From positions 1 through 58,390 of the forward strand of contig REEA01000090.1 of NCBI GenBank assembly GCA_007695305.1: DNA of 58,390 bases, read 5' to 3'. This DNA is from Bacteroidia bacterium. GTDB taxonomy: Bacteria > Bacteroidota > Bacteroidia > Bacteroidales > UBA7960. The position numbers and the translations under genes are program-made. Positions 2,648 through 18,591 of the stretch are shown here, piece by piece (the first letter of the stretch is position 1; each line of letters starts with the position of its first letter). The notes beneath the pieces were generated by a model, which saw only the letters and a program-made list of their open reading frames with translations, had not been told where the DNA came from and ran no database searches.

Positions 2648-4933
2648 TTATTTCCTGATAATTTGCAGGCTGCGTATTTCCATGCCGCCTGTTGTGAAAA
2701 CCTGCATAAAATAGAGACCCGGTTTGAATCCACGGCAATCTATGGAATAGGTAAAGATTTCCGGGGGGTTGGATTCGTATATCACCCGGCCAGGCAGATC
2801 AAATATGCGGATACCCTTAACCGGCAGGTTTGATTCCACCGCAACATGTGTCACTGCCGGGTTTGGAAAAACATAGATGGATGTTTTCTCCTTTGAAGAA
2901 AGACCCGTATCATCGGGATACAATGTTACGGTCAAAAATGTATGACCGGTAACCTGGATACTGTCTTCAATAGTATAATAACTCGCCTTTTCCACCATAT
3001 ATGCATAAAGCCCTGCCGTCACATAGTTGAAGGTATAATCGCCGGGGTCGTTTGTTTCTGTGCCCAGTTTTATCACAGCATCATGGATAGGCTCTCCAAG
3101 ATCATCCAGGATTTCGAAATAAACATTGTAATGCCCGGGATCGTAGACCAAATCCTCCACCGTCATGTCTCCGGTTACTTCGATCACCCGGTGGGGGTCT
3201 CCCGGCCATTCTCCGCCATCCCATCCTTCTCCAAAAAAGTCAGAAAAGTATTTGTATTCATAGGTTCCTTCTTCCAGTAAAAATGTTTTGCTATAGATCA
3301 AAGGGTCATCACTGATTTTTTCCATCTCCAGTTCCGGATCCGTGCCCGGTTCTGCCCAGTCGGTCATTGTGCCGGTGATAACCACGTAGTAGTCATCCGG
3401 GTCAAAACCAAACACTTCAAACAAAACGTTAAAAGTTACCGTGAATAACTCAGGTCCCTCTGTTTCCGCTGTTACCGTGTAGGTGCGCTCTTCACCGTGG
3501 AAAGCGGTTATGGTATAAACCAATGGCTCTGTGAGGTCAACAGCTTGTCCGCCGGGCGGGTCTGCAACGGCGTAATCGGAGAGTTGTAAGGTTGGGATTA
3601 ACCCATCTGTGCTTACTCCGGATGGCAAAAGAATGTGGATGGTCTGTTCATCCTGATCGATGGTTCCGTATACATCCTCATCGAGCTGGTCGTTGTGATC
3701 AGCCTCCAGCACAAAGGACTCCACCAGGTTTTCGGGCTCCCAGATGGGCAGAAAAGTAACAGGACCCAGGGAAGGATCATCGTCCTGATCCACGATGTAT
3801 CCGGCGGCTACATCCGGGTCGTCGGTGCCCCAATAGTTGTGCTGGGCAAAAATGGACTCTGGTGTATTGTTGTATAACCCGTAAATGGTTCCGGTATTGA
3901 TGTTGTTTTCAATGACATTGTATCCGGTAAGTTCGTTGCCATCCTGTCCCAGGTTGGGCCGCGCATTGTTCTGTATGGTCACACCCCAGAGATTGCCTTT
4001 GATGATATTGTTTTTTATGAAGGCCTGGTTGGTGGTTCCCCCCATAAAGTTCAGGCCGCTGCCTCCCAGCATGGGTTCTCCCTGTATGTTATTGTCAATA
4101 AAATGATTGTTTTGGATGATGCTGGTGATCTGGCTGCCCAGGCCGGCATAGCCGTAGCGGTTGTTTACCACATAGTTGTCTTTGATCAGCGCAAGGGTAT
4201 GACCCACCGACATCAGGTTGGCAACGGCGATGCCCCCTGCCATGGTGTATTCCCCTTCAATGTAATTCCCAATGATCTTCAGGGTGTCGGCCGCTGATGG
4301 TCCCAGATTGATCTGTGGCCTGTTGGTATTGGCCGTGCCATTGCTGATGAACTCGTTGTACAGGATTTGTGGAGACGCCTGTACATTGGCCCCGCTGCCA
4401 ATGGCCGAACCCGCATTCTCAAGGAAAAGGCAATTCTGGATCACGGGATTGGAGCCATGCAGGTTAATGGCTGCGCTGGTGTTTGACATGTCGAAATAAC
4501 GGATCGTGCAGTTTTCAAAAAGCATGTGTGTGCCAATGAGCTGAATGCCGCCGGCAAACTCAATAATGGTGTTCTTCATCATGGTGTCATCGGTCGCATC
4601 CTCGAATCGAAACCCTTTAAAACGGTTCATGGCACTGACTGAAGTGAAAGTTACCTCTTCCGGCGGATCTACCACGAGGGTCCCATGGATATTGATACGT
4701 TTGTCAAAAGCCACTTTCACGGTGAGGTCATCCAGGATTTCCAAACCATCATTTGTGGCAATGGTAAGGTCCTGGTTGATGATATAACTTGCCCCGTCGA
4801 AGATCACCACACCCCCGCTGATGCTGACAAGGTCATCCATTGTGTAGGTTTCGCCATCACCCGGAGTGATGAACTGGGCGTTTGCCATTGAACCCACAAG
4901 AAAAAAAGCAAGAATGGTAAACAGTGTCTTCAT
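2648..4933 (-). CDS. T9SS-secreted beta-helix protein with possible glucan-binding domain
   Basis: A 761-residue secreted protein. The start at 4933 gives a clean signal peptide (MKTLFTILAFFLV...ANAQ); a longer frame to 5008 adds an unlikely extension. Residues ~30-390 are a right-handed parallel beta-helix with repeated N-N/I-x-N turns (for example IIQNNHFIDNN). An Ig-like or cadherin-like stretch follows (~400-490), then at ~515-600 a module reading VVITGTMTDW and later YEYKYFSD, which resembles the starch-binding/E-set folds of CBM20/CBM48 type. A carboxypeptidase-regulatory-like sandwich (~600-675) precedes the T9SS type A sorting domain (VFPNPAV, GLYFMQV, ending IIRK). No catalytic residues of a pectate lyase are obvious, so it may bind rather than cut. 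It lies directly upstream of the GH97 gene on the same strand, which suggests joint action on a glucan. Confidence 0.85.
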   Translation of the reverse strand: MKTLFTILAFFLVGSMANAQFITPGDGETYTMDDLVSISGGVVIFDGASYIINQDLTIATNDGLEILDDLTVKVAFDKRINIHGTLVVDPPEEVTFTSVSAMNRFKGFRFEDATDDTMMKNTIIEFAGGIQLIGTHMLFENCTIRYFDMSNTSAAINLHGSNPVIQNCLFLENAGSAIGSGANVQASPQILYNEFISNGTANTNRPQINLGPSAADTLKIIGNYIEGEYTMAGGIAVANLMSVGHTLALIKDNYVVNNRYGYAGLGSQITSIIQNNHFIDNNIQGEPMLGGSGLNFMGGTTNQAFIKNNIIKGNLWGVTIQNNARPNLGQDGNELTGYNVIENNINTGTIYGLYNNTPESIFAQHNYWGTDDPDVAAGYIVDQDDDPSLGPVTFLPIWEPENLVESFVLEADHNDQLDEDVYGTIDQDEQTIHILLPSGVSTDGLIPTLQLSDYAVADPPGGQAVDLTEPLVYTITAFHGEERTYTVTAETEGPELFTVTFNVLFEVFGFDPDDYYVVITGTMTDWAEPGTDPELEMEKISDDPLIYSKTFLLEEGTYEYKYFSDFFGEGWDGGEWPGDPHRVIEVTGDMTVEDLVYDPGHYNVYFEILDDLGEPIHDAVIKLGTETNDPGDYTFNYVTAGLYAYMVEKASYYTIEDSIQVTGHTFLTVTLYPDDTGLSSKEKTSIYVFPNPAVTHVAVESNLPVKGIRIFDLPGRVIYESNPPEIFTYSIDCRGFKPGLYFMQVFTTGGMEIRSLQIIRK

Positions 4934-5124
4934 AATATATGTTTTTTGCAAGGTTATTCCTTGGTAAATAACCCTGATCAGTTTGTTGGCTATTGGAAAA
5001 TAAAACACGCCTGTCCAAAAATGGATGTAGACATAAGAACATTGAAGTCCATGTAAAATGTCTATTTATCCTGATGCAATATATGAATTTTTCCCATTAT
5101 TATGAAAAATAATCGATTCCTGTG

Positions 5125-5157
5125 CTTGTTCTTAATATGAGAAAATATATATCTTTG
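5125..5157 (+). promoter_or_regulatory. Bacteroidota-type promoter for the 5203 gene
   Basis: CTTG at 5125-5128 is followed, after 21 bases, by TATCTTTG at 5150-5157, matching the phylum's -33 TTG and -7 TAnnTTTG boxes with normal spacing. Transcription would start near 5164, leaving a leader of about 40 bases before the ATG at 5203. Confidence 0.65.
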
Positions 5158-5202
5158 CATATCGGATAATATTGTGATTCCCACAATCAAATTTAAACTA
5201 TT

Positions 5203-5946
5203 ATGATAAAATTTCTACTCCCCCTTATTCTAATCACTTTTACCGCATATTATAGTTTGGGTCAGGGTTTGATATTGTTAGATGCTGACGGCAACGACAT
5301 TACCGGAGACACGCTTTTTGTGCATGGAGATGCCCATGCGAATCTGATCAAAGGTGAAGTATTTTTTCACAACGACTCTGATGATGATATGCAGGTTATG
5401 GTCAGAAAAATTGAGATTGATATCCTGGAGGGAACAAATAATGCTTTTTGTTGGGCCAACTATTGTTTTACTCCGGATGTTTATGAAACCACTGATCCTA
5501 TTATTCTTGGGCCCGGTGAGACCTCTTCGGCTACAGATTTTTATGCAGAATATTATCCGCAGGGTCAGGTGGGCATTAGTATCATCGACTACGAGTTTTT
5601 TAGCCGGAACGAAGGGTTTGAAGAGGTCATCGTCACAGTGGTATTTGAAACGGAGGATACCACAAATATTCCTTTTATCTCTGATGAAAACCAACCCCGG
5701 GTGAGTATATATCCCAATCCGGCGTCGTCCGTTGTTGTACTTTCCCACAATTTGGATGATGTGTCCGGGCATTCCAAACTTGTGATCTACGACATTAGCG
5801 GGATATTGGTTGAGCGTTTTCCCATCGACTTGCGGAATAATTCTTTTACATTCGATATCAGTAATTATCCGGATGGACTATATCTGTACAGACTGGAAAA
5901 TGATACCGGGCAAATTTATTCCGGAAAGCTGGTGATCAGGAAATAA
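5203..5946 (+). CDS. small T9SS sorting-domain protein with a CxxxxC pair
   Basis: A 247-residue secreted protein. It has a signal peptide ending near LGQG (~21), a beta-sandwich-like domain (~25-155), and a T9SS type A sorting domain (IYPNPAS at ~170, GLYLYRL, ending VIRK). The middle contains CWANYC, two cysteines four residues apart, likely a disulfide on a surface loop, followed by a GPGET turn and a YYPQG motif. I know similar small sorting-domain proteins near Omp28-type genes but no function. The gene has its own promoter at 5125-5157 and is followed by a weak terminator, so it may be transcribed apart from the Omp28-like genes downstream. Seen: signal, cysteine pair, sorting domain. 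Inferred: link to the redox cluster. Confidence 0.85.
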   Translation: MIKFLLPLILITFTAYYSLGQGLILLDADGNDITGDTLFVHGDAHANLIKGEVFFHNDSDDDMQVMVRKIEIDILEGTNNAFCWANYCFTPDVYETTDPIILGPGETSSATDFYAEYYPQGQVGISIIDYEFFSRNEGFEEVIVTVVFETEDTTNIPFISDENQPRVSIYPNPASSVVVLSHNLDDVSGHSKLVIYDISGILVERFPIDLRNNSFTFDISNYPDGLYLYRLENDTGQIYSGKLVIRK

Positions 5947-5964
5947 CATCTTAGCGGATCACTT

Positions 5965-5983
5965 AAAGGATTATTTCCTTTTT
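5965..5983 (+). terminator. weak intrinsic terminator after the 5203 gene
   Basis: AAAGGA at 5965-5970 pairs with TCCTTT at 5976-5981 around a five-base loop and runs into a short T tract. The stem is only 6 bp, so termination may be partial, allowing read-through into the 6069 gene. Confidence 0.4.
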
Positions 5984-6068
5984 AAAATATAGTTTCTTAC
6001 GTCTTCTTTGTCTGATCCAAAACATAACTTACATTAAACGAATCATTTAAACAACAAAAAAAAGCATC

Positions 6069-8516
6069 ATGAAGAAATTTACGTTTTTGTTTGCGTTATT
6101 GCTTGCCGTATCAATGTCATTCGGACAGATTGTATTACATGAAGATTTCGGAGGCGGTCAGATGCCTCCGGACGGTTGGTCTATCAGTGCTTTTGCGACT
6201 AACTGGTCTGTTCAGTCAACAGCAAATGCCGGTGGTGTGGGACCGGAAGCCCGTTTCAACTGGAGTCCACAATTTTCCGGATCCTCAAACCTTATTTCCC
6301 CATCTCTGGACCTTTCGGGGAATGACTCAGGTGTATTGCTGTTATCGTTCAAACACATGTTAGATCATTTTGGCGGGCCTTACACGTTAGGAGTGGCTGC
6401 GAGAACCAATGGAGGTGCCTGGAATACCGTCTGGCAGATCTTGAATCCCACCGGCAATGTGCCGGCACAGGAAGTGAGTATAGATTTGGATGGTGATATG
6501 GTTACCAGCGACGACTTTCAGTTTTCCTTTTTCTTTTCAGGGAACAGCTACAATATCAATTTTTGGTACATCGATGATGTATTGGTGATGATACCACAGG
6601 AATTTGACCTGGCCGTGAATAGCATTGATGTACCTGACCTTATTGCCGGTTCCACCGTTGTGGAGGGAACGGTTTTAAATCTGGGAACCGATGTCATTGA
6701 GTCTTTTGACCTCCACTGGCAACTCGATGATGGTGACGTGCACACCACCTCTTTTAGTGGATTAAGCATAGAACTGGGTGAGCAATTTCATTTCGAAGCG
6801 GATGACTTTATGGATCCTGATTCCGGCACCTATGAGCTGCATGTTTTCATATCAAACGTTAACGGCGAAACAGAAGATAACAATCCCGACAATGATAGTT
6901 TATCAAAAACCATTTCCGTAGCTTTTGATTCAGTTGCCCGGCGGCCTCTGTTTGAAATGTTTACCAGCTCTACATGTCCGCCTTGTGCTACATTCAACAA
7001 TGGTTTTTTTAACAATTTCGCCTACAATAATGCCGATGATATGTCCCTGATCAAATACCAGATGAACTGGCCCGGAGCGGGTGATCCATATTTTACGCCC
7101 GAAGGCGGCATACGCAGAACGTATTATGGTGTATCGGGTGTACCCAATCTGTTCCTGGAGGGAAATCAATTGGCAACAAGCGGGGCTGTGGTAACAAATG
7201 CGCTCCAGCAGGCACTGCAGGTTCCGTCTTTTATGGCAATCGAAGGGTTTTATGATATTGACGGTGACATGATCAGCATTGATGGCTCGATAATGCCATT
7301 TGCCGACTTTCCCCAATCACGCCTCCATGTCGTTATCATTGAGTCTGTAACTTACGGAAATACCGGAACCAATGGTGAAACGGAATTCCACCATGTGATG
7401 CACAAAATGATGCCCAATGCGCAGGGAACCGTTGTTACCTTATCAGCATTGGAAGAATATACATTCTCCTTCTCTCATGATATGTCAACCACCAACGTGG
7501 AGGAAATGGAAGACCTGATGGTTGTAGTATTTGTTCAAAATCATGGCACAAAAGAAATTTACCAAAGTGCTTATCTGACCAGCGGTAAATTTGTCAGTTT
7601 TAATATTGCAAATGGTGAAACTGATGTTGAGCCTGACGTTACCATTGAAGCCATCTATGATGAACCGGTAACCTTCCTTGATGGTTCAGAGATAACCAAT
7701 GACAATGCCCACGAACTGTTTGTTTTTGAAACTGAGTCCGGAGATGCGGTACCTTTCAGTGTATTCGTTACAGAAGACAATAAAATCATCGGGATACAGC
7801 CTGACAACATGCTGGATTTCCTGACAACCTATGTGATCCATATTGAGGATGTGCTGGGCGCTGATACCGACAAGACCATCGGCGGTGGTTCAGTGTCGTT
7901 TACCACCAGGGATACTTACGGCACACCTGTCATTACGTTTGATCTGGATGATGGAGCCATTGAAATTCCTTTGGATCAAACATTCGTCATCACTTCCAAT
8001 CAGCCTGTCTGGCATGCCGATGGATCAGATATCACCCATGGAACCTTGCCGGATATCATTCACTTTCATACGCAGGCCGGTGGAGAAGCTGTCCCATTCG
8101 ATGCCGAAATCAATGAGGATCACACCGAAATTCACATAATGCCCCTGGAGATGCTGGTGCACAATACCACCTATGTGCTTGAACTGCAACCGGTAATGGG
8201 AATTGACGGTCAGGTTACGGATCCCGAATCCATACATTTTACCACCGAAGATCAAACGGCTGTATCTTCACCTGACCTGTCAGAAGTCAATATCTATCCA
8301 AACCCGGCCTCTTCAGCGTTGTTTGTTGAAATACCGGCCATTGAAGGCCCGGCAATGCTCAGGGTATCAGACATGGCCGGAAATCGCGTGCTTGAAATGG
8401 TGCTGCAGGATACACAAGTGAGAATCGACGTATCCGTATGGAAAGACGGTATTTATCTTGTTGAAGTGTTTAACGGTAAACAAAAAGAAATCCGTCGCGT
8501 TTCAATTGTCAGGTAA
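6069..8516 (+). CDS. Omp28-like T9SS-secreted multidomain protein with CPPC motif
   Basis: An 815-residue secreted protein. After a signal peptide (cut after SMSFGQ, ~20) comes a cleaved-adhesin/choice-of-anchor-J-like sandwich (~20-175, with NINFWYIDDV), a CARDB-like domain (~180-280), a thioredoxin-fold Omp28-like domain (~290-505) with the redox motif Cys303-Pro-Pro-Cys306 and a cis-Pro-like GVPNLFLEG, two bacterial Ig-like repeats (~510-730), and a T9SS type A sorting domain (IYPNPAS ... SIVR). The fusion puts a possible disulfide-active domain on the cell surface or in the medium. It is the first of three Omp28-like genes in a same-strand run. Family membership is known from other Bacteroidota; the enzymatic role of the CPPC motif is inferred. 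Confidence 0.87.
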   Translation: MKKFTFLFALLLAVSMSFGQIVLHEDFGGGQMPPDGWSISAFATNWSVQSTANAGGVGPEARFNWSPQFSGSSNLISPSLDLSGNDSGVLLLSFKHMLDHFGGPYTLGVAARTNGGAWNTVWQILNPTGNVPAQEVSIDLDGDMVTSDDFQFSFFFSGNSYNINFWYIDDVLVMIPQEFDLAVNSIDVPDLIAGSTVVEGTVLNLGTDVIESFDLHWQLDDGDVHTTSFSGLSIELGEQFHFEADDFMDPDSGTYELHVFISNVNGETEDNNPDNDSLSKTISVAFDSVARRPLFEMFTSSTCPPCATFNNGFFNNFAYNNADDMSLIKYQMNWPGAGDPYFTPEGGIRRTYYGVSGVPNLFLEGNQLATSGAVVTNALQQALQVPSFMAIEGFYDIDGDMISIDGSIMPFADFPQSRLHVVIIESVTYGNTGTNGETEFHHVMHKMMPNAQGTVVTLSALEEYTFSFSHDMSTTNVEEMEDLMVVVFVQNHGTKEIYQSAYLTSGKFVSFNIANGETDVEPDVTIEAIYDEPVTFLDGSEITNDNAHELFVFETESGDAVPFSVFVTEDNKIIGIQPDNMLDFLTTYVIHIEDVLGADTDKTIGGGSVSFTTRDTYGTPVITFDLDDGAIEIPLDQTFVITSNQPVWHADGSDITHGTLPDIIHFHTQAGGEAVPFDAEINEDHTEIHIMPLEMLVHNTTYVLELQPVMGIDGQVTDPESIHFTTEDQTAVSSPDLSEVNIYPNPASSALFVEIPAIEGPAMLRVSDMAGNRVLEMVLQDTQVRIDVSVWKDGIYLVEVFNGKQKEIRRVSIVR

Positions 8517-8570
8517 ATGGTTTGCGTGTGCATTTGCATGCATCCTGACATTTAGTTGTTCATCTAATTG

Positions 8571-8613
8571 GAAGTTTCGGGGATATCCAAAACGCTGATA
8601 TCCCCGAAATTTC
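8571..8613 (+). repeat. 17-bp stem hairpin between two Omp28-like genes
   Basis: GAAGTTTCGGGGATATC at 8571-8587 pairs with GATATCCCCGAAATTTC at 8597-8613 over 17 positions with a single G-T wobble, around a nine-base loop. No T tract follows, so it is not a classical terminator. It sits 22 bases before the next start codon. It could limit read-through, protect the upstream mRNA end, or mask the 8636 start. Confidence 0.75.
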
Positions 8614-8635
8614 AGCTATAAAAATCTTTGGTTTT

Positions 8636-10063
8636 ATGCTGCATATGCTAAAAAAACTTGCTGTTTATTGTACACTTTTCGTAATTCCACTTTTTGGAAT
8701 GGCCGACAAGATTCATGATATCCGTCTGGATCGTTTTTACGGTGGGCCATTTGCTCAAACCGGTCATGATTATGACATTCATGGTGAGATAACCTACCTG
8801 GGAAGTGGTACTTTTTCATCTCTGTACATGCACCATCGCGTCAATGAAGAGGAGGTGCATACGATCTTCTTTGAAGAAATAGATCTGAACCCCATGATCC
8901 CGTTTTATTACTTGTCGGAAACGCCATGGGTGCCTGCCGCAGCAGGATTGCATGAGCTTCAGGTATGGTTCAGCGGTTTAAATGGGGCACCTGTTGATGA
9001 GGGTGCCAGCGATACGCTGGTGGTTCCGGTGGATGTCTATGATTATCTGCCCGAAAGGGAAATTACCCTGCTTGAAAGCTTCTCAAGCATGAACTGTGGA
9101 AGCTGCGCCATATTAAATCCGCAACTGAGGGCAATGATCCAAAACCAGGAAGATACCTATGCCATGATCTTTTATCATCCTTTTGGATATGAGAACAGTC
9201 CGATATATCATTTCAATCCGAAAGACAACGATAGCCGGCGGGCATTCTATGAAGTGACATTTTCTCCTTTTGCTGCCATGGGTTCCTTTTACCAGGGTTC
9301 TGCAGAATGGATCACAGAGGAGCGGATGGAACTGAAGCACAGCAGGCCTGCAGCTTTCACCATAGATGGCACCTACCACATTCAGGATGGCTTGTTGTTT
9401 GCAAACATTGAAACGGAGTCGTTTGCCAACTTTTTTTCGCAAAACTTGCGGCTTATGGTGTCTCTGACAGAAGATCACATTGAATTTGATTCCCCTCCCG
9501 GCAGTAACGGAGAAAAGGATTTTTATCATGTGATGCGGTCCTTTATTCCTGACGCCAACGGAATATTTATTCAGGAACAGGAGGTGGGTAGTACTTTTTC
9601 TGTTCAATTGCCTTTTGATGTGAGCCAGGGACAAATCGACACCACACAGATCGAGTTACTGGCGTTTATCCAGGATATGGAAACGATGAATATTCACCAA
9701 ACCTCCCGCCTTGTTTACCAGGAACCCGATGATGATGACAACGGTGATGATGATAATGATGATGGTGATGATGATGGTGATGAAACCTCTGTTGATGATC
9801 CTTCAGCAGAAACCGGTATGTATATTTATCCAAATCCCGGAAACGGCTTGTTTACCATCCGTATGCTTAATGGATCTGTTGACGGATTCATCAGGATATT
9901 TGACCTCCGGGGCAGGCTGGTTCATCAAATAATTGGATACGGTGCAGAAACGATGAGCGACGAATATCAACTTGATCTGTGTCACCTGGATACCGGTTTC
10001 TATATTTTGCAAATAGAATCGGGCAATAAACTTTTTAACCAAAAGATATCCATTATTCCTTAA
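8636..10063 (+). CDS. Omp28-like T9SS-secreted protein with CGSC motif and Asp-rich linker
   Basis: A 475-residue secreted protein paralogous to the 6069 product. Translation may begin at 8636 or, giving a more usual signal peptide (MLKKLAVY), at 8645. A beta domain (~25-135) precedes the Omp28-type thioredoxin fold (~140-355), whose redox motif is Cys154-Gly-Ser-Cys157 instead of CPPC. A linker of almost only Asp with Gly and Asn (~364-382) separates it from the T9SS type A sorting domain (IYPNPGN ... GFYILQI). The Asp run may bind calcium or act as a flexible spacer. It lies 119 bases after the previous paralog, with the 8571-8613 hairpin between, and 45 bases before the TlpA gene. Confidence 0.86.
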   Translation: MLHMLKKLAVYCTLFVIPLFGMADKIHDIRLDRFYGGPFAQTGHDYDIHGEITYLGSGTFSSLYMHHRVNEEEVHTIFFEEIDLNPMIPFYYLSETPWVPAAAGLHELQVWFSGLNGAPVDEGASDTLVVPVDVYDYLPEREITLLESFSSMNCGSCAILNPQLRAMIQNQEDTYAMIFYHPFGYENSPIYHFNPKDNDSRRAFYEVTFSPFAAMGSFYQGSAEWITEERMELKHSRPAAFTIDGTYHIQDGLLFANIETESFANFFSQNLRLMVSLTEDHIEFDSPPGSNGEKDFYHVMRSFIPDANGIFIQEQEVGSTFSVQLPFDVSQGQIDTTQIELLAFIQDMETMNIHQTSRLVYQEPDDDDNGDDDNDDGDDDGDETSVDDPSAETGMYIYPNPGNGLFTIRMLNGSVDGFIRIFDLRGRLVHQIIGYGAETMSDEYQLDLCHLDTGFYILQIESGNKLFNQKISIIP

Positions 10064-10108
10064 ACCATAGTATGCATTTGTCTAATTCACCCATTTAATC
10101 ACCCTGAT

Positions 10109-10609
10109 ATGAAAAGAGTCATTTCTTTTATTGCCTGCCTGATCTTTGTTTCACTGATGCAGGCAAATGCGCAGAAGAGCGCGGACTTGCCCAATCTGAC
10201 TATTGTTACTCTGGATGGACAAGAAATCAACGCGAGCAACCTTCATAATGAAGGGAAGCCCTTTGTGATCAGTTTCTGGGCCACCTGGTGCCGCCCCTGT
10301 TTGCAGGAGCTTAATGCCATTGATGATATCTATCATGAATGGCAGGAATACGGGTTTAAACTTATAGCAGTGAGTACGGATGATGCCCGCACCCGTCCTA
10401 ATGTGTTGCCCATGGTTATGGGCCGTGGATGGGATTACGAATTTTATCTGGATGAAAACGGTGATTTTCGCCGTGCAATGGGTGTGAATATTGTGCCCCA
10501 CACATTTATCTTCAACGGCAAAGGGGAGCTTGTATATCAGCATACCTCTTTTTCGCCGGGCATGGAATGGGACATGTATGAGTTGTTAATTGAACTGCTT
10601 GAAGAATGA
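10109..10609 (+). CDS. TlpA-family thioredoxin, exported
   Basis: A 166-residue periplasmic thiol-disulfide protein. The signal peptide (MKRVISFIACLIF...ANAQ) ends near residue 22, and the thioredoxin fold carries FWATWCRPC with Cys61 and Cys64 and the later cis-proline motif VPHTFIF. Such proteins reduce or exchange disulfides of envelope proteins. The stop codon overlaps the start of the DUF6029-type gene (ATGA), so the two are almost certainly translated together. This suggests that the neighbouring barrel or the Omp28-like proteins are its partners. The electron donor (a CcdA/DsbD-like protein) is not in the window. Confidence 0.93.
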   Translation: MKRVISFIACLIFVSLMQANAQKSADLPNLTIVTLDGQEINASNLHNEGKPFVISFWATWCRPCLQELNAIDDIYHEWQEYGFKLIAVSTDDARTRPNVLPMVMGRGWDYEFYLDENGDFRRAMGVNIVPHTFIFNGKGELVYQHTSFSPGMEWDMYELLIELLEE

Positions 10610-12288
10610 GCCTGGAGAAGATAAAAAACCGATACAGTAATTTGTTGGCTATTCTCCTGATTTGCCTGTTTACAGGAATAACCTTCCAGACATACGGACA
10701 GAATTTGCTTGATGGAGCCAGGATATGGGGAAATTTCCAGCTTGATGCCCAGTATTACCTGCCCGATTCCGTAATTGATGCACCGGAAGTATCTGAAAAA
10801 ATCCGGATGAACGGTTTTGCCAACGTCAATATGTCGTACCGGGGATTTACAGTAGGCCTGCGTTACGAGAGCTATCAGAATGCCTTGCTGGGCTACGATG
10901 AAAACTACAACGGGCATGGCATTCCCTATCGTTTTATTTCCTATACCCGGGATAACCTGGAGGTTACTGTTGGCAACTATTATGAGCAATTCGGGAGCGG
11001 TTTGATTTTCCGAACCTATGAAGAGAAAAATCTGGGCATTGACAATGCCATGGAGGGTTTTCGCCTGGTTTACCGGCCTGTGGAAGGGGTTAGTCTGCGT
11101 GGCGTGATTGGCAGGCAGCGTCTGTTTTTCGACACCGGACCGGGTATTGTGAGAGGCTTTGATGCGAGAGTCAACCTAAACGCTGTGATACCGGCTTTAA
11201 CTAATCACCAAAATCGTTGGACAATCGCCGGAAGCGTGATCAGCAAATACCAGCCGGATAATAACCCCCGCTATCATTTGCCTGAGAATGTTGCCGCTTT
11301 TGCCGGTCGCCTTAATTTTGTGAGAGGCCCTCTGAACATTAGCACTGAATACGCCCATAAGGTAAATGATCCTTCTGCCGATAACAATTTCATTTATAAA
11401 GACGGTCAGGCGTTGCATATCAACGCAACTTACGCTGTAAGAGGGTTGGGGCTGCTTGTTTCTGCCAAGCGGATCGATAATATGGCTTTTCGCAGCGACC
11501 GTAATGAGACAGGTAACAATCTTAATATCAATTATTTGCCACCAGCAACAAAACAGCATTTATACAGCCTGAGTGGTATGTATCCATATGCCACCCAGCC
11601 AAACGGAGAAATTGGCTTCATGTCCGAACTAAATTTCACCATCCCCAGGGAAACAACTCTTGGAGGACCATACGGCACAACGGTGACCCTCAACTACAGC
11701 CTTGCCAATTCCATACACCGGGAAAGAATCCATGATACCATCCCCATAGGACAACGAGGCACCAAAGGGTATCGTTCCGATTTCTTCCGCCTGGGTGATG
11801 AACGCTATTTCCAGGATGTTAATATTGAATTGAACAGGCGGTTTTCAAGAACGTTGCGGGGACTATTTTCCTATGCCTACATTACTTATAACCAAAATGT
11901 GATTGAAGGATATGTGGATAAGGAAATGGTATATGCACACATACTGATTGCTGATATGACCTATCGACTGCCCAATCGAAGAAGCCTCCGGGGGGAGTTT
12001 CAACACCTGTCCACCCGGCAGGACAACCAGGATTGGGTCATGGCCATGGTGGAATACAATATAGCCCCCAATTGGTTCTTTGCTGTTAGCGACCAGTACA
12101 ATTACGGCAACAACAACAAGGACCTTCGCGTTCATTACTATACAGTGAGTACCGGATATACCCGCGGTGCAAACCGGTTTGGACTCTCTTTCGGCAAACA
12201 GAGAGAGGGCATTATTTGTGTCGGGGGTGTTTGCCGAAAAGTACCTGCATCCTATGGTTTTACCCTGAATGTAACCAGTAGTTTTTAA
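10606..12288 (+). CDS. DUF6029-type predicted outer-membrane beta-barrel protein
   Basis: A 560-residue protein with an N-terminal hydrophobic signal (~12-32, ending near TYGQ). After it come long alternating beta-strands rich in aromatic and glycine residues (for example FTVGLRYESYQN, LEVTVGNYYEQFGSGL), ending in a terminal Phe, which is the usual signature of an outer-membrane barrel. I place it in the DUF6029 family of Bacteroidota by its opening region and the QFGSGLIFR stretch. Near the C-terminus two cysteines, Cys538 and Cys543 (CVGGVC), sit in what should be a surface or periplasmic turn. It overlaps the TlpA gene by four bases and is followed after 5 bases by the Omp28 lipoprotein. 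Function unknown. Confidence 0.82.
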   Translation: MSLEKIKNRYSNLLAILLICLFTGITFQTYGQNLLDGARIWGNFQLDAQYYLPDSVIDAPEVSEKIRMNGFANVNMSYRGFTVGLRYESYQNALLGYDENYNGHGIPYRFISYTRDNLEVTVGNYYEQFGSGLIFRTYEEKNLGIDNAMEGFRLVYRPVEGVSLRGVIGRQRLFFDTGPGIVRGFDARVNLNAVIPALTNHQNRWTIAGSVISKYQPDNNPRYHLPENVAAFAGRLNFVRGPLNISTEYAHKVNDPSADNNFIYKDGQALHINATYAVRGLGLLVSAKRIDNMAFRSDRNETGNNLNINYLPPATKQHLYSLSGMYPYATQPNGEIGFMSELNFTIPRETTLGGPYGTTVTLNYSLANSIHRERIHDTIPIGQRGTKGYRSDFFRLGDERYFQDVNIELNRRFSRTLRGLFSYAYITYNQNVIEGYVDKEMVYAHILIADMTYRLPNRRSLRGEFQHLSTRQDNQDWVMAMVEYNIAPNWFFAVSDQYNYGNNNKDLRVHYYTVSTGYTRGANRFGLSFGKQREGIICVGGVCRKVPASYGFTLNVTSSF

Positions 12289-12293
12289 AGCGC

Positions 12294-13157
12294 ATGAATA
12301 TGTATATCAGAAAGATTATCCGCAATGTATTATTGATCCCTTTCATGTCATTGTTTGTTTTGATGGGATGCGACACCATTGAAGGTCCATATATGACTGA
12401 TTATGAAGGCCCCAATGGAGAACATTGGGACGTAGTTCAAAAAGTTCTGCTGGAAGAATTCACGGGGCATCAATGCCCCAATTGCCCTGAAGGTTCTGCC
12501 ATCGCCGCAGAGATCAAAGAATGGTACGGAGACCGCCTAGTGATCATGTCGATTCATGCCGGTTGGTTTGCCCGTGTTTCAGAAGGTACGTTCAGCTATG
12601 ATTTCCAGACTGACGAAGGCAATACCCTGAATAATTTTTTCGGAGTAAATCAGTATCCAATCGGCATGGTAAATCGTAAAGCGTTTAATGCCAGTAGTTT
12701 GATGGGGCCTTATGCCTGGTGGGATGCTGTGAGCCTGGCCATGGAGAAGGAACCGGCCTTTGGACTGGGATTGGACGTTTCTTATACTGAAAGTTCAGCC
12801 ACTTTAACAGCAAATATTGATGTGCATACCCTGATGCCATCATCCTGTCAATACCGGTTATCGGTGTTTCTCACCGAAAGCGGTATCATCAAGCCACAAC
12901 GTACCAATGATCCCGATTATCCATCAGGGGTGATTGAAGACTACGAGCATAAATATGTTTTGCGCACTTCATTGAACGAAGTCTGGGGAGAAATGGTCAA
13001 TGAATCTTCCATTAATGTGGGGGACAATTTCACTTTCAGTTATACCATCACCCTCGATGAGGATTGGGTCCCGGAAAATAGCTCAATTGTGTCTTTTGTG
13101 CACCATGCAGTAACCCGGGAGGTGATACAGGTTGAAGAAAAGCCGGTCATTCCATAA
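12294..13157 (+). CDS. Omp28-family outer-membrane lipoprotein with CPNC motif
   Basis: A 287-residue lipoprotein (LMGC lipobox, Cys26; the start could be 12294 or 12300). The body matches the Omp28 family first described in Porphyromonas gingivalis: a thioredoxin-like start EEFTGHQCPNCPEG with Cys61 and Cys64, then the strand-rich half with MVNRKAF. Unlike its two larger paralogs upstream it has no sorting domain, so it is anchored by lipid. It begins 5 bases after the DUF6029-type gene and closes the TlpA-barrel-Omp28 unit. A redox or adhesin role has been proposed for the family; neither is shown by the sequence alone. Confidence 0.9.
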   Translation: MNMYIRKIIRNVLLIPFMSLFVLMGCDTIEGPYMTDYEGPNGEHWDVVQKVLLEEFTGHQCPNCPEGSAIAAEIKEWYGDRLVIMSIHAGWFARVSEGTFSYDFQTDEGNTLNNFFGVNQYPIGMVNRKAFNASSLMGPYAWWDAVSLAMEKEPAFGLGLDVSYTESSATLTANIDVHTLMPSSCQYRLSVFLTESGIIKPQRTNDPDYPSGVIEDYEHKYVLRTSLNEVWGEMVNESSINVGDNFTFSYTITLDEDWVPENSSIVSFVHHAVTREVIQVEEKPVIP

Positions 13158-13207: not shown

Positions 13208-15265
13208 TTATCTTCTGACAAACCTGTCTGTTGTGATTGTCTGGTCATCATGTATTGCTCTTAGGAAATAGATCCCTGCCGGCAGGTCTGAGATATTTAC
13301 CTCCATCTCATTTGCTGAATGGGCATCATTGCCGATTCTTGTTTGACCAAGCATGTCGAGCACTTCTACCCGGATCATTTTTTTATCGCTGATCACTTTG
13401 ATCCATTGATCCGCAGGATTTGGAACTATGCTGAACTGACCCTGTTCTCCGGTCATTGGCACAGACGTATCGTCTTGTGTGAGGACTACCTCAATCACCA
13501 GATCTTCTGCGGTGAGATTCACTGACCCTTCCTCAGGGAAAAACCCATCTTTGGTCACTTCCCATTGGAGGCTCTGATGGACACCCACCTCTTCAAAAAG
13601 AGCAAAACCCATATTGTCAGTATCTGTCTCACCATAGTTCTCAAGCCAAACCTGAGCACCTTCCAATGGATCAACTAAACTGACGCTTGTGCTGCCTGCT
13701 GCTGTGGCGCCAACCTGAAACTGCACGGATATGTATAAAGTGGGAATATCCACCGTTGCAGTGTTGGAAGGATCCGACTCACCCGCATCATAATACGCTG
13801 TCACATAATAACTGTATGTGGTATTTTGCTCAAATAATTCATCAGTATACGCTGTTTCTGTGATTTCATCGGCAAGGAGCTCATCATCTTTATAAAGATT
13901 ATAATGCATGAAGTCAGCCTCTTTGGAGGCAGGGGGATCCCACTCCAGCATTATGGCTTCCCCTGTAAATGAGGCTTGCAGGTTTTGCGGTGAGGACAAA
14001 ACAACCGGTGGCATGGCTTCGAAAAACCGTCCGTAAATGTCCGAATATTGGTTATTTACGCGTGAGTCCTGCCATAAAACAAGAAACTGGTCTCCCTGGC
14101 CGGTTACTTCAGGATCTCTCTGGTGGAACTGATTGACACCAACCGGTATTTCATTGGTATGGTAACTTCCATCCGCATTGATGATTCTTCCGTGGACTTC
14201 ATACCATACCGTTTGTTTTTCCTTGTCTACACCCGCCGCAGGATATCTGATCAGATCATGGAACCTGGCCACCGGAGCAGCTTCTTTGGTCAGGTTTTGC
14301 TGTTCCCAAACCACCATAAACTGGTTTCCGTTTGATCCCACACGCGGCCACGATCGTTCTTCGTTGTTTTGCAGGGGACTTATAGCCATATCTGTTCCAA
14401 CTGCGTTGCCGCTGCTGTCAAACATTTGACCGAAGACACCATTTTTTGATCCGTGCCGGCGATCGGCCCATACTGCGAGATAGTGTTCGCCATTGTAGGC
14501 TACCCTCACGAGCAATTGTCTCTGGGGCAGATCCGATATCACAAAGTCATCCCCAACGGGCTCCCCATCGGTGTCAAAGAACCATCCGTAAATGGAACGT
14601 TCGCCGCTGCGGTTATCGTCCCAAACGATCAGATAATTGGTGCCATCGAAGAGAATATCCGGGTATATTTGTGCATGGCTTTGCTCAAGCACTTCTGGCC
14701 TGATGATGAAATTGCCGCCTACGAGGTTATAGTCTGTGGCACAAACAAACTGGCCCAGTATCCGGGCACCTTGTGTTGGCAGCCCATCCTGCCATATCAC
14801 CAGGTAATGCTCACCGTCAAAAGCAGTGCGCATGAATGCCGGTGAGTGCTGGGCGAGATTGTCGTTAACCTGGATATTGCCCGATAAAGGTGCTCCGTTC
14901 AAACCAAGAATACGAGCCATCCCATCACGGTTATAATCAAATATGCCCCTCTGCCGCGACCAGGTGTATAAAAAGTTCTCCGTGCCCATAGCCAAGGCAG
15001 GCATGAACGACATGGCCGGATGGGCGGGAACGACCAATTGCTCCTGGGAAACAACCCCCTCAGGTGAAATAAACCTGGAGTAAAAACTGTAATCACCACC
15101 ACGCCTGTCAAGATATACAGTAAAGTAATCTTCGCCATCAAAAACCACCATGGGGTAATTTTGACTGAATCCGTCAGTGGCAACGGGAAATTCTTCAGCG
15201 GTCAATGCTACCGGTAAATAAAAAAATGTTAGAGCGAGTAATATATAAAAAGTATGTTTCAGCAT
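13208..15265 (-). CDS. T9SS-secreted repeat protein with fibronectin III domain
   Basis: A 685-residue secreted protein. The start at 15265 gives MLKHTFYILLALTFF as signal peptide; the longer frame to 15295 is unlikely. Residues ~20-415 hold six copies of a 50-70-residue repeat centred on (Y/F)LVxWxDxR followed by YGxxF (for example YLIVWDDNRSGERSIYGWFF), probably blades of a beta-propeller. A fibronectin III domain (~420-510, LEWDPP ... YYVTAY), a carboxypeptidase-regulatory-like domain (~515-600) and a T9SS type A sorting domain (IVPNPAD ... GIYFLRA, ending VRR) follow. No catalytic motif is seen; binding or adhesion is the likely role. It converges on the Omp28 operon 50 bases away. Confidence 0.83.
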   Translation of the reverse strand: MLKHTFYILLALTFFYLPVALTAEEFPVATDGFSQNYPMVVFDGEDYFTVYLDRRGGDYSFYSRFISPEGVVSQEQLVVPAHPAMSFMPALAMGTENFLYTWSRQRGIFDYNRDGMARILGLNGAPLSGNIQVNDNLAQHSPAFMRTAFDGEHYLVIWQDGLPTQGARILGQFVCATDYNLVGGNFIIRPEVLEQSHAQIYPDILFDGTNYLIVWDDNRSGERSIYGWFFDTDGEPVGDDFVISDLPQRQLLVRVAYNGEHYLAVWADRRHGSKNGVFGQMFDSSGNAVGTDMAISPLQNNEERSWPRVGSNGNQFMVVWEQQNLTKEAAPVARFHDLIRYPAAGVDKEKQTVWYEVHGRIINADGSYHTNEIPVGVNQFHQRDPEVTGQGDQFLVLWQDSRVNNQYSDIYGRFFEAMPPVVLSSPQNLQASFTGEAIMLEWDPPASKEADFMHYNLYKDDELLADEITETAYTDELFEQNTTYSYYVTAYYDAGESDPSNTATVDIPTLYISVQFQVGATAAGSTSVSLVDPLEGAQVWLENYGETDTDNMGFALFEEVGVHQSLQWEVTKDGFFPEEGSVNLTAEDLVIEVVLTQDDTSVPMTGEQGQFSIVPNPADQWIKVISDKKMIRVEVLDMLGQTRIGNDAHSANEMEVNISDLPAGIYFLRAIHDDQTITTDRFVRR

Positions 15266-15432
15266 GACTGTATAATTTTGTTCTTGAATATCCAAACCTT
15301 TGAATCTATAAAATTAAGAAAAGTTGAATATATTAGCAAGTACAATTTTTTGTATATTCGTATTGTCCGTAAATTGTAAATTGTTTTCTTATCTTGCAAC
15401 TCATTTTTCAGCTACAAACAAATACAACAATC

Positions 15433-18400
15433 ATGAAAAATCAATTATCTGTTTTTTTTCTTGCTTGCGCCTGGCTTTGCCTGCCATTTATTGTAACCGG
15501 CAGTAATACAACGCCGAGGAACGACAATGGGTGGACCATTGTCAATCAGTTTTCCATTCACAACAACGCAGGTGGCCTGGCTTCTGATGGAAATGTCCTG
15601 TTTATTGGTGGGTTATACGGCAACGTGGGTCACAAGGTCTACACTTTTGATCCGGCTACCCAGGAATTGCAGTTGCTGTTTGATGGGCCTCAGGACAATA
15701 CGCTGGGACTTACATTTGACGGTCAGCATTTGTGGACCATTGAACAAACAGGGGCTTCAACACCCGCACAGGCCTGGCAGATAGACCTGGAGGGTAATCT
15801 TGTGTCGCAGTTTGATCTTCCAGGGTCCTATATGTCGGGTATTGCCTGGGATGATGGAAATTTCTATGTGGCAACCTATTTCCCGAATCCCGGAACCATT
15901 CATTATGTGGATGATCAGGGCAATGTTATCTCCGATTTTACACCACCTTCGAACCAGCCCTGGGATCTGGCTTTGCAAGGTGATTCATTGTGGATTGTGG
16001 ATTTCTGGAATGATTTCATCCATTTGGTTGAACTGGACGGAACCTTGATCGAATCTTTTCCCTATGAGGATCACCGGGCCACCGGTATATACCATGATGG
16101 CACTTTTCTCTGGTACATCGGCAGAACGTCAACAGGAATTTCCACCCTTTACCAGGTCGATCCATGGGGCTCCGGTACACCAGTCATACAGGTTCCGCCT
16201 TCTTACCATTTCGGGAATGTTACCCTGGGTGATTCAGAAGACTGGGTGCTCACAATTTTGAATACCGGAACAGGCGACCTGGTGGTGAACGACATCACCT
16301 TTCCCGGTAAGAACAATGCCTTTTCAGTTGATGCTGACTTACCCATTACCATTGAACCGGATGCAGGCCATGCAGTAACGGTGACCTTTGCACCACAGGA
16401 TATCCATATTTATGAAACCACCATGACCATACATTCCAATGATCCGGCTTCTCCTGAGGTGGATATTATTCTTGAAGGGAACGGTTTGGCTTCAGGACCT
16501 TATCTTACTACTGTTGAAGACCTTATAGATTTTGGCGACAGGAGGATAAACTCTTCTACCCGTGGTTTCATTGAACTGAAAAACATGGGTGATTCACAAC
16601 TGCTCCTCGATGATATTACTTTTTCTGCGGAAGACTACTGGTGGGACTGGACCGTTGAGTTTCCGCTTACACTGAGCCCTGTGCAATCGATAGCTCTGCC
16701 ATTTTGGTTTCAGCCATTGACAGCCGGAGTGGTTGATGGTGATGCCATCTTGTATTTTAACAATGAGGAGCAATCACCCTATACCATTGAACTCACCGGT
16801 TACTCTGAGGATATTGATTATCCGCTGGCAACTGTTCTGTGGGATTTACATTTGCCCGGCAGTAGTTTTGATAATCCGCGGGCTATTTTACCGGTTCCTG
16901 ATGTGAATGATGATGGGGTGGATGATGTGGTGATATGTACCCGTGGATTGCGCATCATGATGTTTAACGGAAATGCTTCAGGTACGCCTGATCTCTTATG
17001 GGAAACAGAGGTGGGTACGGTAGAATATGCCAAAGGTATTGTGCTCACTGACGATTTGAATGGTGATGGCTTCCATGATATTATCATTGGAACAGCATAC
17101 GGTGATCGTGCTGTTACGGCTCTGTCGTCACGTACCGGTGAAATTATATGGCGCTTTGAAACCAATCTGTATGGCGGTGGTGGCTGGGTATATATGGTAG
17201 ATGCCTCTTATGACTATAATGGTAACGGTTATCGGGATGTCCTTGCCGCTACAGGCGATGACGGACAGGGTACGGGTCCCAGGCGGGTTTTCCTTTTGAA
17301 CGGGTTAACAGGTGAACTGATCTGGGACACCCCCATGGGCGGTGCGGCCTATTCCGTGCTGGCTGTTCAGGATTTTAACGGAGATGGTATTCCAGATGTA
17401 GTGGCCGGAGGACAAACACCAGGCCAACAGGGAAGAGTGCTGGGCTTAAGCGGTGCCAACGGTTCTATCCTTTGGGAACTCTCTACTTCAGGAAGTTCTG
17501 TATGGGCTTTGGAGCAAATCAGTGATATAACTGATAATGGTATCAATGATGTGATCATCGGAACGTTTAACGGCCATTATTATCTTGTGGATGTGACCAA
17601 TGGTGAAATCGTCTATTCCGGCAACCTGGGCAACTCTCTGATCGTTGACTTTTGGCAGGCTGGTGACCTGAACGGAGATGGCTACATGGATATTTTGCCG
17701 TCTTATTCCACGGTGAAAATGGCACGTGCCATCAGCGGCAAAGATGGCCAGATATTATGGTCAACACCCATTGCTGATCAGGGTTGGGCGGTAACTTCCT
17801 TGCGCGACATCACCGGCGACGGAATCAATGATGTGGCAGTGGGAACTTTGTTTCAGACAAACTACCTATACTTTTTGGCCGGTGCCGACGGTCAGGTGCT
17901 GGACTCTATTCCTATGCCTGACGCGGTAGATATAATACGGGCCATCCCTGACATTACCGGCGACAACTCCATGGAAGTGGTTGCCGGTGCCAGAAACAGA
18001 TATGTGGCAGCTTTCTCGGGTGGAACAAAAGTAGCCGACGAATACTACGATGTGACATTCCTCGTAACCGATGACCAAACTCCGGCCAACCCCATTGAAG
18101 GTGCAACCATCGTGATCCAAACAACCGGGTTCTCTCTCACCACTGACCAAGAAGGTTTCGCCACCGTCGAACTGGTCGAGGGTGAATATTTATTCACTGT
18201 TTCAAAAGACGGATATTTCCCTTTTGAAGACACCTTTTTACTGGAAGGAGAAGACAAAACGGTTGAGGTTGTCCTTTCAACAGATGACACCGGGATACAG
18301 GACATCTTACTGCCCCAGGTGGTCAGGGCTTATAATTATCCAAACCCGTTTTCCGACTATACCAATATCATCTTTACACTCAATTTGCCGGCACAGGCTT

Positions 18401-18591
18401 CAATTTATGTCTATGACATGTCCGGCAGAAAGTTCAACATACTTCAAAACAGGTCTTTCCCTGCCGGCGAAAACGCGATTCAGTGGAATGGCTCCGGCCC
18501 CGATGGCAGTCCGTTGGTGGATGGGATTTATATTTTCGAAGTCCGTACAAGGGATAGCATTTACAGAGACCGAATGTTTATCCTAAGATAA
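15433..18591 (+). CDS. T9SS-secreted FG-GAP/propeller protein with ASPM/HYDIN-like domains
   Basis: A 1052-residue secreted protein; the start at 15433 is preferred because it begins the signal peptide MKNQLSVFFLACAWLCLP. Order: an NHL-like propeller (~25-250), two choice-of-anchor-D (ASPM/SPD-2/HYDIN-like) sandwiches (~255-360 and ~362-460, with YHFGNVTLGD), an FG-GAP/PQQ-like propeller with Ca-binding DxNxDGxxD turns (~465-865, for example DFNGDGIPDVVAGG), a carboxypeptidase-regulatory-like domain (~868-945) and a FlgD-like T9SS sorting domain (YNYPNPFSDYT ... IYIFEVR). It is a typical large surface protein; no enzyme motif is visible. A bidirectional terminator lies just after it. Confidence 0.83.
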   Translation: MKNQLSVFFLACAWLCLPFIVTGSNTTPRNDNGWTIVNQFSIHNNAGGLASDGNVLFIGGLYGNVGHKVYTFDPATQELQLLFDGPQDNTLGLTFDGQHLWTIEQTGASTPAQAWQIDLEGNLVSQFDLPGSYMSGIAWDDGNFYVATYFPNPGTIHYVDDQGNVISDFTPPSNQPWDLALQGDSLWIVDFWNDFIHLVELDGTLIESFPYEDHRATGIYHDGTFLWYIGRTSTGISTLYQVDPWGSGTPVIQVPPSYHFGNVTLGDSEDWVLTILNTGTGDLVVNDITFPGKNNAFSVDADLPITIEPDAGHAVTVTFAPQDIHIYETTMTIHSNDPASPEVDIILEGNGLASGPYLTTVEDLIDFGDRRINSSTRGFIELKNMGDSQLLLDDITFSAEDYWWDWTVEFPLTLSPVQSIALPFWFQPLTAGVVDGDAILYFNNEEQSPYTIELTGYSEDIDYPLATVLWDLHLPGSSFDNPRAILPVPDVNDDGVDDVVICTRGLRIMMFNGNASGTPDLLWETEVGTVEYAKGIVLTDDLNGDGFHDIIIGTAYGDRAVTALSSRTGEIIWRFETNLYGGGGWVYMVDASYDYNGNGYRDVLAATGDDGQGTGPRRVFLLNGLTGELIWDTPMGGAAYSVLAVQDFNGDGIPDVVAGGQTPGQQGRVLGLSGANGSILWELSTSGSSVWALEQISDITDNGINDVIIGTFNGHYYLVDVTNGEIVYSGNLGNSLIVDFWQAGDLNGDGYMDILPSYSTVKMARAISGKDGQILWSTPIADQGWAVTSLRDITGDGINDVAVGTLFQTNYLYFLAGADGQVLDSIPMPDAVDIIRAIPDITGDNSMEVVAGARNRYVAAFSGGTKVADEYYDVTFLVTDDQTPANPIEGATIVIQTTGFSLTTDQEGFATVELVEGEYLFTVSKDGYFPFEDTFLLEGEDKTVEVVLSTDDTGIQDILLPQVVRAYNYPNPFSDYTNIIFTLNLPAQASIYVYDMSGRKFNILQNRSFPAGENAIQWNGSGPDGSPLVDGIYIFEVRTRDSIYRDRMFILR

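What the first reader, a model, noticed from the sequence alone, without database searches (positions are those of the whole stretch)
5125..13157. Plus-strand cluster of Omp28-like proteins, a TlpA and a barrel protein: possible cell-surface redox system
Six genes in one direction, from their own promoter, include three thioredoxin-fold proteins with different redox-type motifs (CPPC, CGSC, CPNC), of which two are fused to T9SS sorting domains and one is a lipoprotein; a TlpA thioredoxin (CRPC); a predicted outer-membrane barrel with a CVGGVC pair; and a small T9SS protein with a CWANYC pair. The cysteine pairs outside the thioredoxin folds could be the substrates. A complete periplasm-to-surface disulfide relay exported by T9SS is a coherent hypothesis that I have not seen described.
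Basis: partly seen in the sequence, partly recalled or inferred. Interest (0 to 1): 0.65.

Follow-up and report, generated by a model that had tools for sequence, protein, structure and literature searches.

The report
Conserved surface thiol-redox module of Bacteroidota
A set of genes that travels together across the Bacteroidota encodes thioredoxin-like proteins inside the envelope and (predicted) on its surface, plus a large outer-membrane barrel with an always-conserved cysteine pair facing outward, which looks like an undescribed way of sending reducing power through the outer membrane.

Summary
Six co-directional genes (5203-13157) encode a small T9SS cargo with CWANYC, two T9SS-tailed Omp28/thioredoxin proteins (CPPC, CGSC), a periplasmic TlpA (CRPC), a DUF6029 barrel (CVGGVC) and an Omp28 lipoprotein (CPNC). 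In 178 non-redundant DUF6029 loci, TlpA is directly upstream in 136/177 and Omp28 directly downstream in 145/175. In 180 loci the cysteine pairs are near-invariant (DUF6029 180/180, TlpA 134/135, Omp28 lipoprotein 149/151). DUF6029 and Omp28 co-occur in 149 genomes of the order (85 both, 2 and 6 single, 56 neither), and two congeners lacking DUF6029 also lack every Omp28. The TlpA is a dedicated clade. AlphaFold2 gives a 24-strand barrel whose cysteine hairpin lies in the last extracellular loop; the Omp28 lipoprotein matches HBP35, a T9SS-exported P. gingivalis protein with proven thioredoxin activity. DsbD sits in the same operon in two lineages. Most likely: cytosol -> DsbD -> TlpA -> DUF6029 -> surface Omp28 and cargo, in the reducing direction. 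Electron flow, lipoprotein orientation and substrates are inferred. Three genomes without SprA keep DUF6029 and Omp28.

The parts
5126..5157 (+). Bacteroidota-type promoter pattern TTG-N21-TATCTTTG upstream of gene 1
   Evidence: pattern scan, one of 11 + strand matches in the window; suggestive only
5203..5946 (+). gene 1: small T9SS cargo ('N1' family), CWANYC at 5449-5466
   Evidence: T9SS tail PF18962 2.4e-12; N-terminal family found in 74 of 180 DUF6029 loci; 71 of 76 members keep C-x3-4-C, mostly CW..C(Y)
6069..8516 (+). gene 2: 815-aa T9SS-tailed Omp28/thioredoxin-like protein with Big_5 domains, CPPC at 6975-6986
   Evidence: PF11551 36.2 bits over cut-off, PF13205, PF18962
8636..10063 (+). 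gene 3: 475-aa T9SS-tailed Omp28-like protein, CGSC at 9095-9106
   Evidence: PF18962 8e-12; PF11551 below cut-off; NF045500 Omp28_seleno 2e-9; CxxC kept in 61 of 62 upstream T9SS-Omp28 proteins
10109..10609 (+). gene 4: TlpA/ResA-type thioredoxin with signal peptide, CRPC at 10289-10300
   Evidence: PF00578 2.4e-19, PF08534, NF002854 ResA 8e-19; member of the DUF6029-linked TlpA clade, SH-aLRT 97-98
10606..12288 (+). gene 5: DUF6029 outer-membrane beta-barrel, overlaps gene 4 by 4 bp; CVGGVC(R) at 12217-12234
   Evidence: PF19494 1e-186; AF2 pLDDT 92.6, 24 strands, Cys hairpin in the last extracellular loop; C.GG.C in 180/180 homologues
12294..13157 (+). gene 6: Omp28 lipoprotein, lipobox Cys26 (codon within 12363-12374), CPNC at 12474-12485, conserved Pro122
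   Evidence: NF033782 150.2 bits over the 150 cut-off; C26, C61, C64, P122 invariant in 50 sequences; AF2 pLDDT 93.7, best PDB match 5y1a HBP35

Best explanation
The six genes form a dedicated thiol-disulfide relay at the Bacteroidota outer membrane. Core: periplasmic TlpA, the 24-strand barrel DUF6029 and an Omp28 thioredoxin-fold lipoprotein. The relay is extended to the cell surface by T9SS-exported Omp28/thioredoxin proteins and a small T9SS cargo with a CW..C pair. Proposed flow: cytosolic thioredoxin -> DsbD (inner membrane) -> TlpA (periplasm) -> the extracellular Cys538-Cys543 hairpin of DUF6029, reached by TlpA docking in the barrel -> Omp28 CxxC proteins -> disulfides of exported proteins. 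Shown here: conserved operon, co-inheritance and co-loss, dedicated TlpA clade, near-invariant cysteine pairs, predicted folds and topology, DsbD in the operon of two lineages. Inferred: direction, the crossing step, partner contacts, substrates, and outward orientation of the lipoprotein.
For: Synteny: in 178 loci (<80% identity) TlpA at -1 in 136/177, Omp28 at +1 in 145/175, both in 121/174, neither in 14; median gaps 24 and 12 bp. Phylogenetic profile in 149 order genomes, mostly one per family: both 85, DUF6029 only 2, Omp28 only 6, neither 56. The 2 exceptions carry a remote DUF6029 variant flanked by TlpA and a T9SS-tailed thioredoxin instead of Omp28. Two congeners with SprA lack DUF6029 and all Omp28; all three Omp28 regions of the own genome lie in this cluster. 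Dedicated TlpA clade excluding the 8 TlpA-like paralogue rows of the own genome. Cys conservation; 116/178 DUF6029 proteins have just two Cys after a crude signal-region correction. Folds. DsbD in the operon, at opposite ends, in L213 and L220/L221; own genome has one DsbD and no VKOR or DsbB match. HBP35 reduces insulin better than E. coli thioredoxin, needing both Cys (PMC2907840).
Against: No biochemistry. DUF6029 has one invariant cysteine pair only, so no wired path across the membrane is visible; TlpA would have to reach into the barrel. The pair is kept in the few loci where neighbours are not, so it might be a structural disulfide. DsbD is operon-linked in only 2 of 178 loci. HBP35 also complements an E. 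coli dsbA mutant (PMC2907840), so oxidation is not excluded. Whether the Omp28 lipoprotein faces outward was not testable. The host genome is a MAG, 94% complete.
Confidence: 0.5

Rival explanations
1. Same module, opposite direction: an oxidase/isomerase line that puts or shuffles disulfides into exported T9SS cargo at the surface; TlpA and Omp28 act as oxidants or isomerases.
For: HBP35 complements an E. coli dsbA mutant (PMC2907840); Omp28 motifs (CGNC, CVNC, CPNC) differ from the TlpA C.PC type; T9SS cargo lies within the module.
Against: DsbD, a reductase importer, is the membrane partner found in the operon; no DsbB or VKOR match in the host genome, although another oxidase could be missed; the TlpA is of ResA/DsbE type.
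Confidence: 0.2
2. DUF6029 is a transporter or export porin (polysaccharide, heme, metal or small thiols) and the thioredoxin proteins merely mature or regulate its extracellular cysteine hairpin.
For: HHpred similarity between Wzi-type barrels and DUF6029 led to a polysaccharide-secretion suggestion (PMC9603273); the model resembles 24-strand ushers and TonB-receptor barrels; HBP35 binds hemin (PMC2907840); the Cys pair stays even where TlpA and Omp28 are not adjacent.
Against: No polysaccharide-export genes among the flanking genes that were named, which were those of two example loci only; the recurrent direct partners are thiol-redox proteins; two or three redox proteins on both sides of the membrane is much equipment for one hairpin.
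Confidence: 0.2
3. The module forms or resets the GldK-PorG/SprF disulfides that couple T9SS and gliding motors to outer-membrane proteins.
For: Those disulfides are essential parts of the machine and the paper names no specific catalyst (PMC12635249); the translocon gene sprA lies next to the module in 23/178 loci; Bacteroidota-wide.
Against: Most genomes lacking DUF6029 have SprA, including two congeners, and three SprA-less genomes keep DUF6029; the DUF6029 Cys pair is predicted extracellular while the GldK disulfide is periplasmic.
Confidence: 0.07
4. An ordinary run of unrelated T9SS cargo genes that happen to contain CxxC motifs.
For: The flanks are also T9SS cargo genes.
Against: Conserved order over many families, co-loss, dedicated TlpA clade, near-invariant cysteines.
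Confidence: 0.03

Closest known systems
HBP35 of Porphyromonas gingivalis (PDB 5y1a)
   Same: T9SS-exported surface protein with a thioredoxin domain of the Omp28 type; best structural match of gene 6; thioredoxin activity needs both Cys
   Different: Studied as a single hemin-binding protein; the passages of the HBP35 paper that were read describe no barrel, TlpA or DsbD partner
Omp28 family (PF11551 / NF033782; PDB 2r2c)
   Same: Genes 2 and 6 score over the Pfam cut-off; gene 6 also over the NCBIfam cut-off
   Different: Known as outer-membrane lipoproteins of unclear function; here placed in a redox operon
TlpA/ResA/DsbE thioredoxins fed by DsbD/CcdA
   Same: Gene 4 fold and WCRPC site; DsbD in the operon of two lineages
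   Different: Known members serve cytochrome c, copper or sporulation targets within the periplasm or its equivalent (own knowledge); here the partner is an outer-membrane barrel
MtrCAB porin-cytochrome conduit (own knowledge; MtrB appears among the barrel matches, 6r2q_B, rank 23)
   Same: Barrel linking a periplasmic redox protein to a surface redox protein
   Different: Hemes against thiols; no sequence kinship; the structural match is generic to barrels
Neisseria surface-exposed MsrA/B (PMC6372556, seen in search results only)
   Same: A surface redox protein of a Gram-negative; its supply by DsbD is own knowledge, not checked
   Different: One lipoprotein, no barrel, no T9SS

Membership tests
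DUF6029 (PF19494) | Pfam score over cut-off along the whole model | tested here: met
   622 bits, positions 5-538 of 538
DUF6029 (PF19494) | outer-membrane beta-barrel fold | tested here: met
   AF2 pLDDT 92.6, 24 strands; the 50 best PDB matches are outer-membrane barrels, TMq up to 0.50
Omp28 lipoprotein (NF033782) | NCBIfam cut-off, lipobox, thioredoxin CxxC | tested here: met
   gene 6: 150.2 bits vs 150; C26, C61, C64 and P122 invariant in 50 sequences
Omp28 (PF11551) | Pfam cut-off for gene 3 | tested here: not met
   21.2 vs 34.9 bits; called Omp28-like only
TlpA/ResA thiol-disulfide oxidoreductase | AhpC-TSA/Redoxin fold with CxPC and signal peptide | tested here: met
   69.9 bits; CRPC; signal peptide read by eye from the sequence
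TlpA/ResA thiol-disulfide oxidoreductase | reductase activity | not testable with these tools
   needs biochemistry
T9SS type A cargo | C-terminal sorting domain (TIGR04183) | tested here: met
   genes 1, 2 and 3, E 4e-11 to 5e-10; T9SS translocon SprA in the same genome
T9SS core component | present only with T9SS and required for it | tested here: not met
   DUF6029 in 3 of 9 SprA-less genomes of the order, and most genomes without DUF6029 have SprA
Polysaccharide-export porin (Wzi-like) | recurrent neighbourhood with OPX/Wzx/Wzy genes | tested here: inconclusive
   recurrent direct neighbours are TlpA and Omp28; other flanks named in two example loci only, no export genes; no direct OPX search made
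DsbD-fed periplasmic relay | DsbD partner | tested here: inconclusive
   operon-linked in L213 and L220/L221 only; host genome has one DsbD elsewhere

The most novel reading that the evidence does not exclude
A thiol-based electron conduit through the bacterial outer membrane: TlpA docks into the 24-strand DUF6029 barrel and hands electrons to its extracellular CxGG[VI]C hairpin, which reduces Omp28 thioredoxins on the outside; the thiol counterpart of porin-cytochrome conduits, widespread in Bacteroidota.
Probability: 0.35. Interest if true: 0.9.

Novelty: new variant of a known kind. Interest (0 to 1): 0.7.

Why it matters
As far as I know, the well-studied bacterial thiol-redox systems end in the periplasm, so surface proteins lie mostly beyond their reach. 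A conserved module that carries thiol electrons to the surface would explain why Bacteroidota export thioredoxins, give a function to DUF6029 (found in 143 of 198 class genomes sampled) and to Omp28, and bear on how disulfides of T9SS machines and cargo are controlled. It makes the question directly testable in laboratory gliders such as Flavobacterium johnsoniae, if they carry the module (not checked by name here).

Tried and rejected
Selenocysteine (TGA) in the CxxC sites of TlpA, Omp28 or DUF6029: none found. Sequence relatives of DUF6029 in the PDB: none. Sigma-70 promoters and terminators: no more than in shuffles. T9SS dependence by presence with SprA: not significant in the order (p = 0.16). 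The Paraprevotella 'Omp28-related' trypsin-recruiting protein 00502 was considered as a functional lead, but the paper models it as WD40 plus Ig domains and mentions neither thioredoxin nor redox.
Full report
1. Observation. The window is the whole of contig C118 of a 2.93-Mb Bacteroidota MAG (94% complete). The nearest named relatives by DUF6029 (88, 74 and 76% identity) are Bacteroidales MAGs whose isolate names begin CSSed. Motif positions were checked. Gaps of 122, 119, 45, -4 and 5 bp make TlpA-DUF6029-Omp28 a tight translational unit.

2. Neighbourhood survey. DUF6029 is found in 143 of 198 genomes of the class, nearly always once. I read flanks of 219 DUF6029 loci and reduced them to 178 with under 80% identity. 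TlpA is directly upstream on the same strand in 136/177, Omp28 directly downstream in 145/175, both in 121/174, neither in 14. An Omp28 with a T9SS tail occurs within six genes in 57 loci, and the gene 1 family within six genes in 61, often on the opposite strand. Bias: the 80 named loci were the best hits and lean towards close relatives; the class and order samples were drawn evenly, but the loci read were chosen by hand for contig length and spread over families.

3. Co-inheritance. In 149 genomes of the order: DUF6029+Omp28 85, DUF6029 only 2, Omp28 only 6, neither 56 (Fisher p = 2e-31, not corrected for relatedness). Within families that vary in DUF6029, Omp28 varies with it in f1, f75, f85, f89, f91 and f92, and not in f76 and f100 (my reading). 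The two congeners G229 and G341 have neither DUF6029 nor any Omp28 match, but do have SprA. The three Omp28 regions of the own genome all lie in this cluster.

4. A second, remote version. Five genomes have a remote DUF6029 relative (36-70 bits) with a variant hairpin (CTSGVC, CTSGIC, CNSGVC, CQAGVC). Four of them carry TlpA upstream and a T9SS-tailed TlpA-like protein downstream; the fifth, L216, has two TlpA upstream. An Omp28 partner replaced by another thioredoxin fold with a surface tag argues that barrel plus thioredoxins is the functional unit.

5. Dedicated TlpA. In a tree of 94 TlpA-like proteins, those beside DUF6029 form one clade (SH-aLRT 97-98) together with TlpAs displaced by a few genes or divergently placed in the same loci. 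The own genome's other TlpA-like proteins fall outside. Three adjacent TlpAs from the remote version also fall outside, and many long branches make details unsure.

6. Cysteines. DUF6029 C.GG.C in 180/180; TlpA CxxC in 134/135; downstream Omp28 in 149/151; upstream T9SS-Omp28 in 61/62; gene 1 family C-x3-4-C in 71/76. In the Omp28 lipoprotein the lipobox Cys, both CxxC cysteines and Pro122 (my reading: the cis-proline of thioredoxins) are invariant in 50 sequences. 116 of 178 DUF6029 proteins have just two Cys after a crude correction for the signal region.

7. Structure. DUF6029: pLDDT 92.6, 24 strands. With both ends in the periplasm, one set of connections averages 4.4 residues and the other 15.8, the usual periplasmic/extracellular pattern. 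Best PDB matches are usher, porin and TonB-receptor barrels with TM-scores to 0.50. Omp28 lipoprotein: pLDDT 93.7; best match HBP35 (5y1a, E 1e-12); Omp28 of P. gingivalis is third and fourth (sequence).

8. Direction. DsbD follows or precedes the module in one gene string in L213 and in L220/L221, two lineages with opposite arrangements. By my rough estimate DsbD would fall somewhere within the fetched flanks about twice by chance, so the weight lies in direct, co-directional adjacency and not in mere proximity. The own genome has one DsbD and no VKOR or DsbB match. HBP35 reduces insulin and needs both cysteines, but also complements dsbA in E. coli (PMC2907840). I favour reduction at about 7:3.

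9. T9SS. sprA lies near the module in 23/178 loci (example), but three genomes without a SprA match (G032, G308, G321) keep DUF6029 with Omp28, two of them with TlpA directly upstream, and their Omp28 proteins carry lipobox-like starts and no detected T9SS tail. Many SprA+ genomes lack the module. So T9SS extends the module but is not needed for its core, which argues against a role as the general maker of GldK-PorG disulfides (PMC12635249).

10. Literature. DUF6029 appears in one paper of the library, with a speculative polysaccharide role (PMC9603273). Searches for Omp28 with T9SS or thioredoxin, and for TlpA with Bacteroidetes outer membranes, found no description of this module. Subscription journals are largely missing from the library, so novelty is not proven.

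11. Verdict. Confirmed observation; interpretation partly supported and strengthened. That these genes work together in thiol chemistry at the outer membrane I hold at about 0.85; the full trans-membrane reductive relay at about 0.5.

Noticed in passing
L214-L218: Remote DUF6029-like family (36-70 bits) with hairpin CxSG[VI]C or CQAGVC beside TlpA and, in four of five, a T9SS-tailed TlpA; seems an undescribed sister family.
   Followed up: partly
L053:1-6762: sprA-ruvA-malic enzyme next to the module; sprA found near the module in 23 of 178 loci.
   Followed up: partly
L220 and L221, L213: Operons that unite TlpA, DUF6029, Omp28 and DsbD; L220/L221 also hold the gene 1 family.
   Followed up: partly
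window 2648-5008 (-), 13208-15295 (-), 15394-18591 (+): Flanking genes are further large T9SS cargo proteins (NosD-like beta-helix; fn3; FG-GAP/choice-of-anchor D), so the region is rich in exported proteins.
   Followed up: no
L095:3390-5459: In a SprA-less genome the Omp28 lipoprotein is a tandem fusion of two Omp28 domains with an added CAGGQC stretch between them.
   Followed up: no
G057:C1:572045-573621: DUF6029 in this genome is broken by stops and frameshifts into three matches; decayed gene or sequence errors.
   Followed up: no
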